Assembly (NCBI RefSeq): GCF_015482585.1
Contig: NZ_CP049742.1
Location: forward strand, 1,198,501-1,262,500
Direction of reading: 5' to 3'
Length of the DNA stretch: 64,000 nt
Source of the DNA: Mangrovibacillus cuniculi
GTDB lineage: Bacteria > Bacillota > Bacilli > Bacillales > R1DC41
The notes under the pieces are model-generated. The model was not told where the DNA came from, searched no databases, and saw only the letters and a list, made by a program, of their open reading frames with translations. How positions within the stretch are numbered: the stretch's first letter is position 1; each line of letters starts with the position of its first letter. Positions 18,233 through 38,361 of the stretch are shown one piece after another. The translations under genes were made by a program, and so were the position numbers.

Positions 18233-18490
18233 ATACAAAAAGTCCCCGTTTTGCTCTATGTTACTAGAACAAAACGAGGACGAAAGCTTTCGCGGTGCCA
18301 CCTCAACTTAGGTCAATTACTGACCTCACTCAAAAATCCAATAACGGTGGATGACCGATAAAAGCTACTAATCTTCGTGACGTTAACTTTTACACTCCTA
18401 AGTCCATTCCACAGAGCTCCTCTTACCGGCTCTCACCAAACCCGGTTCTCTGTAAAGACGAATCCATCTGTGTACTACTCTTAGTCATTG
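18233..18490 (-). promoter_or_regulatory. Tryptophan T-box riboswitch, downstream copy
   Basis: Transcribed leader of trpE. On the minus strand it has a Stem I with the specifier TGG (complement of 18404-18406, in GAATGGACTT), then the T-box AGGTGGCACCGCG (18287-18303), then a terminator pairing GTCCTCGTTTTG with CAAAACGGGGAC followed by T5 (18281-18236). Uncharged tRNA-Trp would bind the specifier and the T-box and favour the antiterminator. This is the second of two tandem copies. Confidence 0.92.
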
Positions 18491-18513
18491 ATTTACATTA
18501 TTAAATTGATTTC

Positions 18514-18628: not shown

Positions 18629-18870
18629 AGTCCCCCATCCTCTATAAAAAGGACGGGAGACCCGCGGTACCACCTTCATTAGTAGTTAAACTACTCACTC
18701 TGTCGCGCTTTTGCGCTGTCCTTTTGATAACGAGAAGGAATAACTCGCCTAGCCCTACTACTATTTCAGACAGGTGCTCCGAAGTCCATTCACTTACATC
18801 TATCTCCAGTTTCCACCACCCACTGGCTCTCTTTACATAGATAAATAAGTTACTACTCTTCTTCATAGCA
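18624..18870 (-). promoter_or_regulatory. Tryptophan T-box riboswitch, upstream copy
   Basis: First of two tandem T-boxes. On the minus strand, Stem I carries specifier TGG (complement of 18786-18788, in GTGAATGGACTTCGG), followed by the T-box AAGGTGGTACCGCGGG (18676-18661) and a terminator pairing GTCTCCCGTCC with GGATGGGGGAC, then TCTTTT. Both copies read Trp. Tandem trp T-boxes are known from the B. cereus group. Confidence 0.9.
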
Positions 18871-18911
18871 AATGTATATGCATTTAATTGTTTAAATTAT
18901 TAATTTACTTT

Positions 18912-32440: not shown

Positions 32441-32520
32441 TGTATGACTAAATAAACGTATCGATAACAAATGAAAATACAGAAAATAATCCTTTTCACT
32501 CTGTTAAAAAGACGCTACAC

Positions 32521-32666
32521 CGTTTCTCTCCCATCCAGACTATACTGTCGGCTTTGGAGTTGCACCAAATCCACCGGCACGAGTCTCACTCTGTGCACGG
32601 GTCACGGACTAAGAAGTTTCCTTCATCACCGCCGGTTGGGAATTTCACCCTGCCCCGAGAAACATC
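32521..32666 (-). promoter_or_regulatory. FMN riboswitch (RFN element)
   Basis: All conserved RFN blocks are present on the minus strand: TCGGGGCAGGGTGAAATTCC, ACCGGCGGTGA, AGTCCGTGACCC, GTGGATTTGGTG and GCCGACAGTATAGTCTGGATG, closed by P1 (GTTTCTC with GAGAAAC). FMN binding should promote the terminator and shut off ribDE(BA)H. Confidence 0.97.
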
Positions 32667-36332: not shown

Positions 36333-37454
36333 ATGAATACTCTAATAAAAAACGCTGTAATTTACACAATAGTTAATGAAAAACCCTTTTCTGGTGACGT
36401 GTTAGTGACAGACGGAAAAATCGCCAAAGTCTCTCCTTCTATTACTCCTATAGCAGGGGCTTCTATCATTGATGCAAATGGTGCACACCTATTACCTGGT
36501 TTTGTCGATGTACACACTCATCTAGGTTTGTATGATGAAGGAACTGGTTGGGCGGGCAATGATGCAAATGAAACGATTGAACCACTTACTCCCCATATAA
36601 GAGCCATTGATGGAGTCTATCCACTAGACCCTGGTTTTCAAGATGCCATTAAGTTCGGTATTACTTCTGTACATGTCATGCCTGGCAGTGCCAACGTTAT
36701 TGGAGGTACCACATCCGTTATTAAAACATACGGTAAAAACGTTCAGGACATGATGATTCAAGAAACAGCCGGACTTAAAGTTGCCTTTGGTGAAAACCCT
36801 AAAAGAATTCACAGCTCCGGGAACAAGGACTCTATTACTAGAATGGGCATTATGGGGATGTTGAGAGAAGCATTTTATCATGCCAAATATGTCGATAACC
36901 CCGATGACCTTAGAGTAGCACCTATCGTAAAGGCATTAAAAAAAGAAATACCAGTTCGAGCTCATGCACATCGAGCCGATGATATTTTAAGTGCTATTCG
37001 TTTAGCAGAAGAGTTTGATTTAGATCTTCGTGTGGAACATTGTACAGAAGGACATTTAATCAAAGAAGAACTAAAAGGATTAGGATTAAAAGTAAGCGTT
37101 GGACCTACTCTTACTCGCAAATCAAAAATTGAGTTGAAAAATAAGACTTGGAATACGTATCAAGCTTTAACAGAGTCAGGTGTCGAAGTGAGTATCACAA
37201 CAGATCACCCGTATACACCTGTTCAATATTTAAATGTTTGTGCAGCTTTAGCCGTTAGAGAAGGTTTAACACAACAAAAAGCCTTGGAAGGTATCACCAT
37301 CTTACCTGCAAGAAATCTTCGAATGGATGATAGAATTGGTTCCATAGAAGTTGGGAAAGACGCGGACCTAGTGTTATGGAATCAACACCCTTTCTCTTTT
37401 ATGGCAAAACCAATTTGGACGATGATTGACGGTAAAATAGTTCATTCGACATAA
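36333..37454 (+). CDS. Amidohydrolase (imidazolonepropionase-like)
   Basis: 373 residues from ATG 36333 (GGAAAGGAAA upstream; an in-frame start at 36255 lies inside the DedA gene). Metal-dependent hydrolase of the amidohydrolase superfamily: LPGFVDVHTHLGL (HxH, about 59-61), later His in RAHAHRADD and RVEHC, and Asp in TDHPYTP. C-terminal VGKDADLVLWNQHP is typical. The closest recognisable shape is the imidazolonepropionase-like group; substrate unknown. No hut genes are nearby. Confidence 0.82.
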   Translation: MNTLIKNAVIYTIVNEKPFSGDVLVTDGKIAKVSPSITPIAGASIIDANGAHLLPGFVDVHTHLGLYDEGTGWAGNDANETIEPLTPHIRAIDGVYPLDPGFQDAIKFGITSVHVMPGSANVIGGTTSVIKTYGKNVQDMMIQETAGLKVAFGENPKRIHSSGNKDSITRMGIMGMLREAFYHAKYVDNPDDLRVAPIVKALKKEIPVRAHAHRADDILSAIRLAEEFDLDLRVEHCTEGHLIKEELKGLGLKVSVGPTLTRKSKIELKNKTWNTYQALTESGVEVSITTDHPYTPVQYLNVCAALAVREGLTQQKALEGITILPARNLRMDDRIGSIEVGKDADLVLWNQHPFSFMAKPIWTMIDGKIVHST

Positions 37455-37513: not shown

Positions 37514-37542
37514 TTTTCAAAAAAAACTTTTTTTAGTATGAT
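37514..37542 (+). promoter_or_regulatory. Candidate sigma-A promoter of the leader-acetyltransferase unit
   Basis: TTTTCA (37514-37519), 17 bases, TATGAT (37537-37542). Transcription from near 37549 would give a leader of about 240 bases before the acetyltransferase start. Confidence 0.5.
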
Positions 37543-37629
37543 ACGAAAGTAAAGCGAAATTGAAACAATAGTGATGGATAAAATCACTTGAAACATACAT
37601 TTCATATATCAATTGTTCACATATCTATA

Positions 37630-37791
37630 GTGCTTACAATTGAGGGAAGGCAAATGGTGCGCCACCAGTGAGACTGGTTTTAGTGGGTTCGATTCCCACC
37701 CCGAAATTTTTTGAGAAAGCTGAAAAATTTCGAGGGTGAGAGTCGATTACTGTCCGTAGTTCGACGTGTACCCTCGTGCGGAGGGATAACA
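37630..37791 (+). promoter_or_regulatory. Structured leader with a tRNA-like T arm
   Basis: A non-coding stretch before the acetyltransferase gene folds into several helices. GTGGG-TTCGATT-CCCAC (37683-37699) is a perfect tRNA T arm. Upstream are a D-like arm (GGC 49-51 with GCC 61-63) and ACCA-GTGAGAC-TGGT (37664-37678), an anticodon-like arm; flanks pair 5 of 7 as an acceptor. Then CGAAATTTTT pairs with AAAAATTTCG (37702-37732), and CGAGGGT (37731-37737) with ACCCTCG (37770-37776), enclosing GTCGA/TCGAC. CCCTC (37771-37775) could instead pair with the GAGGG of the ribosome binding site (37781-37785). No known riboswitch class is recognised. Confidence 0.55.
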
Positions 37792-38361
37792 ATGATACTA
37801 ACAAAACGCGACATACACGCCCACGATCAAAACCACGTCTTATTTGAACTAATGACGCATCCTGATGTCTTCCCTTTTGTGCGTCAAAAAGCATATTCCT
37901 ATGATGAATTTGTCTTTCTTACCAAACAAACGGTGGAAGCGGAAGAGAATGGTGAACTAGTTTCCAGAACGATTCTTGATGAATGGGGTAACCCAATAGG
38001 AACAATAAATCTATTTGATATTGAAGATGGTGCGGGCTTTTTAGGAACTTGGCTTGGCAAACCTTACCACGGAAAAGGGTACAACAAAGTAGCAAAAGAT
38101 GCATTCTTTAACGAAGTTTTCTTTGAATTAGGTATGGATACAATTTTCATGCGAATCCGTGTGGTAAATGAGCGTTCTCGCCGAGCAGCAGAAAAACTAC
38201 CATATGTAGTAAAAGCAAATGAATCAAGACCTTCTATCTTTGCGCAATTAAACAAAGATGAGTATATCTATGATCTATACGAAATTCCGAAAGACCTTTA
38301 TATGCTATACTACCTGCGCGAGCAATCAAACCATGCCGAGGAAGCGGCTTTGGAGGCATAA
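37792..38361 (+). CDS. GNAT-family N-acetyltransferase
   Basis: 189 residues from ATG 37792, 6 bases after GGAGGG. RimJ/RimL-like acetyltransferase with a short version of the acetyl-CoA loop (GTWLGKPYHGKGYNKVAKDA) and the RVVNERSRRAAEKLPY segment, where RimJ-type enzymes place N-x-x-S-x-x-x-x-E-K-L. It may acetylate a protein N-terminus or a small amine; the substrate is unknown. The preceding structured leader suggests conditional translation. A terminator follows directly. Confidence 0.8.
   Translation: MILTKRDIHAHDQNHVLFELMTHPDVFPFVRQKAYSYDEFVFLTKQTVEAEENGELVSRTILDEWGNPIGTINLFDIEDGAGFLGTWLGKPYHGKGYNKVAKDAFFNEVFFELGMDTIFMRIRVVNERSRRAAEKLPYVVKANESRPSIFAQLNKDEYIYDLYEIPKDLYMLYYLREQSNHAEEAALEA

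What the first reader, a model, noticed from the sequence alone, without database searches (positions are those of the whole stretch)
37630..37791. Leader with a perfect tRNA T arm and two exclusive pairings for the anti-Shine-Dalgarno, before a GNAT gene
Seen: GTGGG-TTCGATT-CCCAC at 37683-37699 has all bases of a tRNA T loop. A D-like arm and an anticodon-like arm (loop GTGAGAC, U33 in place, triplet GAG) precede it, and flanks pair 5 of 7 as an acceptor. No 3' CCA and several mismatches argue against a working tRNA. Downstream, GAGGG (37732-37736) and the ribosome binding site GAGGG (37781-37785) compete for CCCTC (37771-37775). This is the layout of a translational switch. Inference: the tRNA-like part might sense a tRNA-binding or tRNA-modifying factor, or the acetyltransferase itself (autoregulation).
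Basis: partly seen in the sequence, partly recalled or inferred. Interest (0 to 1): 0.75.

Follow-up and report, generated by a model that had tools for sequence, protein, structure and literature searches.

The report
Cloverleaf tRNA-like switch before acetyltransferase gene
In front of an acetyltransferase gene, many Bacillus-type bacteria carry an mRNA leader that folds like a small tRNA and looks built to switch translation of that gene on or off; the signal it senses is unknown.

Summary
The leader (37644-37791) is a conserved RNA element, found at E < 1e-8 in 47 of 61 genomes of the order, its own included. An orthologous GNAT gene follows in 174 of 176 loci; the other two end too early to tell. 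RNAalifold draws, unprompted, a cloverleaf (acceptor 3 bp, D arm 3 bp, a variable hairpin, T arm 5 bp) plus a 10-bp helix; four of the five helices covary. Among 60 leaders not chosen by the D-arm pattern, T loop TTCGATT and D-loop GG are identical in 60. Rfam 15 has no family here. The next-best matches of a model trained on leaders alone are mostly tRNA-Gly genes. The T-stem 3' strand can swap to a downstream strand, freeing or covering an anti-Shine-Dalgarno; in 125 of 139 leaders the ribosome site is more open with the T arm formed, against 166 of 278 control folds. I read it as a translational ON switch with a tRNA-shaped sensor; the downstream platform is less certain than the cloverleaf. 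Trigger unknown; anticodon mimicry and autoregulation by the acidic GNAT are not supported.

The parts
37514..37542 (+). likely promoter: TTTTCA, 17 nt, TATGAT
   Evidence: 2 promoter-like sites found, 1.2 expected, so weak alone; TATGATA-like words upstream of the element in relatives, commonest 80-94 nt before the D arm (27 occurrences among 146 loci)
37644..37646 (+). acceptor-like stem, 5' strand GGG (pairs with 37700-37702)
   Evidence: 171/171, 171/171 and 170/171 paired; predicted by RNAalifold; never covaries
37649..37663 (+). D-like arm GGC-AAATGGTGC-GCC, with GG at 37656-37657
   Evidence: GG in 60 of 60 and stem paired in 60 of 60 leaders not chosen by the D-arm pattern; one compensatory G-C to A-U (L239)
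37664..37678 (+). hairpin in the anticodon-arm position, ACCAG...CTGGT; loop variable in sequence and length
   Evidence: four covarying pairs in A4; hairpin length 11-28 nt
37679..37682 (+). variable-region linker TTTA (NYTA in all 171 leaders; TCTA in 138)
37683..37699 (+). T arm GTGGG-TTCGATT-CCCAC
   Evidence: 171/171 paired at every pair, loop identical in 171/171, compensatory changes at three pairs; 60/60 outside the pattern scan
37700..37702 (+). acceptor-like stem, 3' strand CCC, continuous with the T stem
37703..37731 (+). A-T-rich helix (37703-37711 with 37723-37731) that carries the strand exchange; kept in both states
   Evidence: 98.7% paired, four covarying pairs in A4; replaced by TAACGA/TCGTTA in L219
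37732..37738 (+). switch strand GAGGGTG: pairs with 37697-37702 (A37733 bulged; OFF) or with the anti-Shine-Dalgarno (ON)
37769..37775 (+). anti-Shine-Dalgarno TACCCTC: pairs with 37732-37738 (ON) or, by CCCTC, with 37781-37785 (OFF)
37780..37785 (+). Shine-Dalgarno GGAGGG
   Evidence: sequence
37792..38361 (+). GNAT acetyltransferase gene (189 aa, Acetyltransf_3), fold like FdhC, PseH, SpeG and RimL

Best explanation
It is a cis-acting translational switch whose sensor domain is a small tRNA-like cloverleaf. As the leader is made, the cloverleaf forms first: a 3-bp acceptor stem continuous with the T arm, and a D-loop GG able to dock on the T loop as in a tRNA elbow (inferred from invariant bases). 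If something holds it folded, the downstream strand GAGGGUG stays free to pair with the anti-Shine-Dalgarno CCCUC, the ribosome site GGAGGG is open, and GNAT is made (ON). If nothing holds it, the downstream strand invades the T stem and acceptor by branch migration (CACCC pairs with GGGUG on top of a constant A-U helix), CCCUC is released to cover GGAGGG, and translation stops (OFF). Shown: conservation, covariation of the cloverleaf, gene linkage, complementarity for the exclusive pairings. Inferred: order of folding, direction of control and the elbow. Unknown: the trigger. I think a small ligand (orphan riboswitch) somewhat likelier than a tRNA-binding factor, because the invariant bases go beyond what a generic tRNA elbow needs (recalled knowledge of tRNA T loops).
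For: RNAalifold on 67 leaders gives the cloverleaf plus the A-U helix unprompted. Pair counts on the same 67: 98.1% paired, 11 pairs with two-sided change, 0 of 500 shuffles reach any of the five measures, and every slid version is lower on every measure. T loop and D-loop GG identical in 60 of 60 leaders found by DNA similarity or covariance model rather than by the D-arm pattern. GNAT downstream in 174 of 176 loci, the other two cut off. Of 14 order genomes without a strong DNA match, 13 have no GNAT match at E <= 1e-15. In one phylum sample of 398 genomes, the six with a strong element score are six of the nine with the GNAT gene. SD more open with the T arm formed in 125 of 139 leaders, against 166 of 278 shuffled controls; E(on)-E(off) averages +4.4 kcal/mol, against -2.6 in the shuffles, so the downstream part is built to challenge the T arm. 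The A-U helix is replaced by an unrelated paired sequence in L219 with the switch strands kept.
Against: No expression, probing or ligand data. The upper part of the competing helix hardly covaries (one two-sided change; 9-10 of 67 unpaired at its outer three pairs). With the platform included, the number of pairs with two-sided change is not clearly above its controls: 8 against a shuffle mean of 5.8, 44 of 500 reaching it, two slid versions equal; for the OFF structure 6, with 340 of 500 reaching it and two slid versions higher. The shuffles do not correct for relatedness. In leaders with the T stem GTAGG (e.g. L042, L043, L197, L198) the downstream layout is rearranged. The exclusive CCCUC pairings are not found in every leader, and the overlap test was only moderately above its control (103 of 164 against 326 of 820). 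14 of 139 leaders do not open their SD with the T arm formed, and only 68 of 139 open it by more than 0.2 (52 of 278 controls). Nearest-neighbour energies ignore tertiary contacts and co-transcriptional folding. GNAT orthologues of three genomes of one other family (f48), of G028, G476 and G518 have no element by the model. The D-arm identity of 116 of the 176 loci is fixed by the pattern that found them.
Confidence: 0.7

Rival explanations
1. The cloverleaf is a decoy that reads the activity of a tRNA-handling protein (for example RNase P, RNase Z, TruB or TrmFO, or a chaperone of the tRNA elbow). Binding, modifying or cutting at the tRNA-like domain locks the ON state.
For: Full T loop and D-loop GG; T arm shares 16 exact bases with the two tRNA-Gly(UCC) genes of the genome; 13 of 14 weak model hits checked are tRNA-Gly genes.
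Against: Acceptor of 3 bp only, no CCA; invariance of the last two T-loop positions and of the D-loop flanks is stricter than those enzymes are known to need (recalled). No test here.
Confidence: 0.28
2. Autoregulation: the GNAT protein binds its own tRNA-like leader.
For: Close linkage of element and gene; some GNAT enzymes act on aminoacyl-tRNA (recalled).
Against: The protein is mostly acidic; its fold neighbours are FdhC, PseH, SpeG and RimL types; under the predicted logic binding would give positive feedback.
Confidence: 0.07
3. The tRNA-like part is cut out and acts as a small RNA or pseudo-tRNA elsewhere; the GNAT gene is only its neighbour.
For: A pseudo-tRNA (tRNAOther) with a role outside translation is described in Bacillus cereus (PMC3399842, abstract start and passages seen).
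Against: Not seen away from the GNAT gene in the 176 loci; the conserved part runs into strands that end at the ribosome site.
Confidence: 0.1
4. A polyamine or magnesium sensor: cations stabilise the tRNA fold and raise an enzyme that acetylates polyamines.
For: SpeG polyamine acetyltransferases are among the closest folds; the logic would be homeostatic.
Against: Identity to SpeG chains is only 13-18%; FdhC and PseH score as well or better and RimL about as well. The SpeG active-site tyrosine (recalled) appears replaced, by my reading by eye of the invariant N126, S129, A132, K135 stretch of A3.
Confidence: 0.08
5. A decayed tRNA gene with no role.
For: It looks like a truncated tRNA.
Against: Strongly conserved across the order and in part of the rest of the class, compensatory changes, fixed gene linkage.
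Confidence: 0.01

Closest known systems
T-box leaders (Rfam RF00230)
   Same: mRNA leaders of Gram-positive bacteria with tRNA-centred recognition and alternative pairings
   Different: A T-box binds a tRNA in trans (recalled); this leader is itself tRNA-shaped. Rfam finds two T-boxes elsewhere in the window but none here
tRNA-mimicking operator of E. coli thrS (recalled; one search gave a search listing only)
   Same: An mRNA leader imitates a tRNA to control translation of the next gene
   Different: thrS imitates the anticodon arm and is read by its own synthetase (recalled); here the anticodon part is free to vary, the elbow bases are fixed, and the gene is not a synthetase
Translational riboswitches with a strand-exchange platform (general kind, recalled)
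   Same: Sensor domain first, competing strand second, anti-Shine-Dalgarno paired or free
   Different: No known aptamer class matches (Rfam 15); the sensor is a cloverleaf; no ligand is known
tRNAOther pseudo-tRNA of Bacillus cereus (PMC3399842, passages seen)
   Same: tRNA-like RNA of Bacillus with a role outside translation
   Different: It has a Trp anticodon and lies 3' of a thioesterase gene; the passages seen do not mention an acetyltransferase
tRNA-Gly (UCC)
   Same: T arm GTGGGTTCGATTCCCA and D-loop core AATGGT identical; best genomic matches of the model after the element
   Different: tRNA-Gly has a full acceptor and a fixed anticodon; the element has neither

Membership tests
tRNA | recognised by a tRNA gene finder or the Rfam tRNA model | tested here: not met
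   ARAGORN 0 genes; no Rfam tRNA hit listed up to E 10 (one weak hit to a tmRNA model of a clan, E 0.34, on the T arm alone; one lower-scoring hit of the same clan was left out by the tool)
tRNA | 7-bp acceptor stem and 3' CCA end | tested here: not met
   3 conserved pairs; CCC followed by GAA or GGA in nearly all leaders
tRNA | 7-nt anticodon loop with a fixed anticodon | tested here: not met
   hairpin 11-28 nt, loop sequence variable
tRNA | T arm with TTCRANN loop and D-loop GG | tested here: met
   171 of 171; 60 of 60 outside the pattern scan
T-box leader | match to RF00230 | tested here: not met
   two T-boxes found elsewhere in the window, none here
riboswitch (general kind) | conserved structured leader tied to one gene | tested here: met
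riboswitch (general kind) | mutually exclusive pairings that hide or expose the ribosome site | tested here: met
   125 of 139 leaders against 166 of 278 control folds; strict double complementarity 78 of 164 against 60 of 1640; not universal, and weak
riboswitch (general kind) | binds a small ligand directly | not testable with these tools
   no ligand known
tRNAOther pseudo-tRNA | Trp anticodon, located 3' of a thioesterase gene | tested here: not met
   no fixed anticodon; precedes a GNAT gene and, in the window, follows an amidohydrolase gene; description of tRNAOther
GNAT, Acetyltransf_3 | Pfam PF13302 above its cut-off | tested here: met
   53.4 bits, cut-off 25.4
SpeG polyamine acetyltransferase | fold and active-site tyrosine of SpeG | tested here: inconclusive
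   fold similar (Z about 15-17) but so are RimL, FdhC and PseH; tyrosine position (recalled) judged by eye from A3

The most novel reading that the evidence does not exclude
A new class of regulatory RNA in which a tRNA-shaped cloverleaf, with a docked D-loop/T-loop elbow, is itself the ligand-sensing aptamer of a translational switch, present across many Bacillaceae and Caryophanaceae (Planococcaceae) in front of one uncharacterised acetyltransferase.
Probability: 0.4. Interest if true: 0.9.

Novelty: new variant of a known kind. Interest (0 to 1): 0.8.

Why it matters
Rfam 15 has no family for it, and the paper searches made here (listings, plus term passages in five papers) brought up no description of it, although it occurs in tractable genera such as Priestia, Geobacillus and Bacillus paralicheniformis. 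It would show that the tRNA fold can serve as a sensor inside an mRNA, and it gives a handle on an acetyltransferase of unknown substrate: whatever stabilises the cloverleaf is a clue to what the enzyme is for. The switch model makes sharp, cheap predictions for mutants.

Tried and rejected
Ordinary or decayed tRNA: rejected. Anticodon mimicry: rejected, loop not conserved. Known Rfam family: none; the five hits are all far below their gathering scores. Transcription terminator using the T run after the T arm: the scan finds no + strand terminator (its one site is on the - strand), and L235 and L240 keep the helix without any run of five T. Element elsewhere in its own genome: one copy only; the next matches are two tRNA-Gly, tRNA-His, the element's own reverse strand, tRNA-Arg and one place not identified. 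Element away from the GNAT gene: none in the 176 loci; three pattern hits (L102, L112, L146) lack a T arm and are taken as chance matches, and L055 is cut off by the locus end. tRNAOther: different RNA. A test for overlap of the longest helices gave 103 of 164 against 326 of 820 and was followed by the simpler test; both are reported. The GNAT fold searches did not single out a substrate. NCBIfam gave no model above its cut-off.

Selection and rows dropped. Its pattern spells the D arm and the next three bases, so D-arm identity in the 116 loci kept from it is by construction; the 60 loci found otherwise are counted apart. Loci were accepted by letter searches that allow 2 to 4 changes in the T arm and 3 to 4 in the D arm. 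Some loci are the same contig reached twice (e.g. L027 and L052); 171 of 176 leaders are distinct. A1 holds 66 mutually dissimilar leaders from those with a GNAT start. A2 holds 60 of these 66, six with long inserts left out. A4 holds 67 after a 93% similarity filter; leaders whose A-T helix was under 6 bp or whose partner lay over 45 nt away were left out, L221 among them. L216 was missed by the letter search (an extra U in the D loop) but scores 85.4 bits. Searches use 139 distinct leaders, searches use 164. Of the more than 100 weak model hits listed were checked against ARAGORN, mainly the best ones plus hits from the order.

Full report
What was checked. All letters and coordinates of the finding are right. 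ARAGORN sees no tRNA in the window and Rfam 15 has no family at this place, at the gathering threshold or down to a loose one. The leader alone (37625-37800) folds better than 198 of 200 shuffles.

Conservation. A BLASTN search of 61 genomes (the window's own and 60 of the order) found the element at E < 1e-8 in 47. With the loci this gave 146 loci in which the element could be read; 30 further distinct leaders came from later searches: 176 loci, 171 distinct leaders. Named carriers include Priestia, Geobacillus, Halobacillus, Oceanobacillus, Neobacillus, Psychrobacillus, Bacillus paralicheniformis, Viridibacillus, Rummeliibacillus and Chryseomicrobium; NCBI places Psychrobacillus in Bacillaceae and Viridibacillus and Chryseomicrobium in Caryophanaceae. 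An orthologue of the GNAT gene follows in 174 of 176, its first codon 79-155 nt from the first base of the T arm; the two exceptions have only 52 and 93 bases of sequence from the start of the T arm.

Linkage. Of the 14 order genomes without a strong DNA match, 13 have no GNAT match at E <= 1e-15; the exception, G028, has a divergent GNAT and no element by the model. In a phylum sample of 398 genomes, nine have the GNAT and six have the element at 92 bits or more, all six among the nine. The other three, of one other family of the class (names not given), have a different leader. Two further genomes of the class, G476 and G518, have the GNAT and no element by the model. In a class sample of 398, 34 genomes score 89-119 bits, then there is a gap down to 40 bits; three elements from other searches score 85.4, 72.6 and 64.6 bits.

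Structure. RNAalifold on 67 leaders predicts, unprompted, a cloverleaf plus a helix: acceptor 3 bp, D arm 3 bp, hairpin 6 bp, T arm 5 bp, A-U helix 10 bp. Pair counting on that structure (seven pairs of the last helix): 98.1% of cells paired, 11 pairs with two-sided changes, 0 of 500 shuffles reaching any measure, slid versions lower on all. An earlier count that included the downstream platform had a weaker control on one measure (8 pairs with two-sided change, reached by 44 of 500 shuffles and equalled by two slid versions). Across 171 distinct leaders the T stem is paired at every pair, changing G-C to A-T at two pairs and T-A to C-G at a third; the T loop TTCGATT and the last two linker bases TA never change. 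In the 60 leaders not chosen by the D-arm pattern, the D stem is paired in 60 (one G-C to A-T change), D-loop GG is present in 60, and the T loop is identical in 60. The acceptor pairs never covary and rest on conservation alone.

Relation to tRNA. The covariance model was built from leaders only. Its weak hits in other genomes are tRNA genes where checked: of 14, 13 are tRNA-Gly with UCC or CCC anticodons and one is tRNA-Asn. In the window's own genome the two best are the two tRNA-Gly(UCC) genes, which share 16 exact bases of the T arm; the one I read also shares the D-loop core AATGGT. So the sensor may descend from, or imitate, a tRNA-Gly body stripped of acceptor, anticodon and CCA. Much of this match rests on the shared T arm.

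Switch. The strand CCCAC-CCC-GAAATTTTT is continuous. Its lower part pairs with the downstream AAAAATTTC in both states. Its upper part pairs either with the T stem and acceptor or with the downstream GGGTGGG (92.4% of cells paired in the whole OFF helix in A1; 95.6% in A4). The same downstream strand pairs with the anti-Shine-Dalgarno, which can instead cover the Shine-Dalgarno (86.1% paired). For the OFF structure the number of pairs with two-sided change is no better than shuffled (340 of 500 reach it) although percentage paired and covariation score are (0 of 500). Folding 139 leaders with the T arm forced or barred: the ribosome site is more open with the T arm in 125, by more than 0.2 in 68; shuffling the downstream part gives 166 and 52 of 278, and the mean cost of the ON state goes from +4.4 to -2.6 kcal/mol. 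In the window's leader the site is 72% open with and 21% open without the T arm. Strict 5-nt double complementarity of the anti-Shine-Dalgarno holds in 78 of 164 against 60 of 1640 shuffles. The upper competing helix has little covariation of its own, and leaders with the T stem GTAGG use a rearranged downstream part, so the platform is less certain than the cloverleaf.

Gene product. The GNAT is Acetyltransf_3. The AlphaFold model (mean pLDDT 94.4) is closest to FdhC, PseH, SpeG and RimL, which does not fix the substrate. The protein is mostly acidic, which speaks against it binding the leader.

Literature. Term searches within four surveys of bacterial structured RNAs (PMC8632094, PMC11109978, PMC6429828, PMC2864571: passages by term only) show no motif tied to a GNAT gene or called tRNA-like. 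Their supplements, and papers outside this library such as a 2017 survey of 224 candidate RNAs (recalled), were not read, so an earlier naming there cannot be excluded.

Verdict. A real, widespread regulatory RNA, not in Rfam 15, with a tRNA-like cloverleaf sensor, very probably controlling translation of the GNAT gene; trigger unknown.

Noticed in passing
window 18273-18497 and 18646-18875, - strand: Two T-box leaders in tandem on the minus strand (RF00230, 130.5 and 134.5 bits).
   Followed up: no
window 32519-32666, - strand: FMN riboswitch aptamer (RF00050, 116.8 bits).
   Followed up: no
L165, L166, L167, within about 100 bases upstream of the GNAT gene: GNAT orthologues in three genomes of another family lack the element but share a short upstream stretch ending in AGGTGGTAGA at the ribosome site; L165 shows a complementary CCACCT further upstream (by eye). 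Whether that half lies inside the transcript is not known.
   Followed up: partly
window 36333-37454: An amidohydrolase gene lies upstream of the element in the window and in many of the 29 relatives listed; whether it is functionally linked is unknown.
   Followed up: no
L221 1327-1500: Most diverged leader (64.6 bits): T arm and D arm are kept, while the A-T helix and the switch strands are replaced by other sequences that by eye seem to allow a similar exchange.
   Followed up: partly
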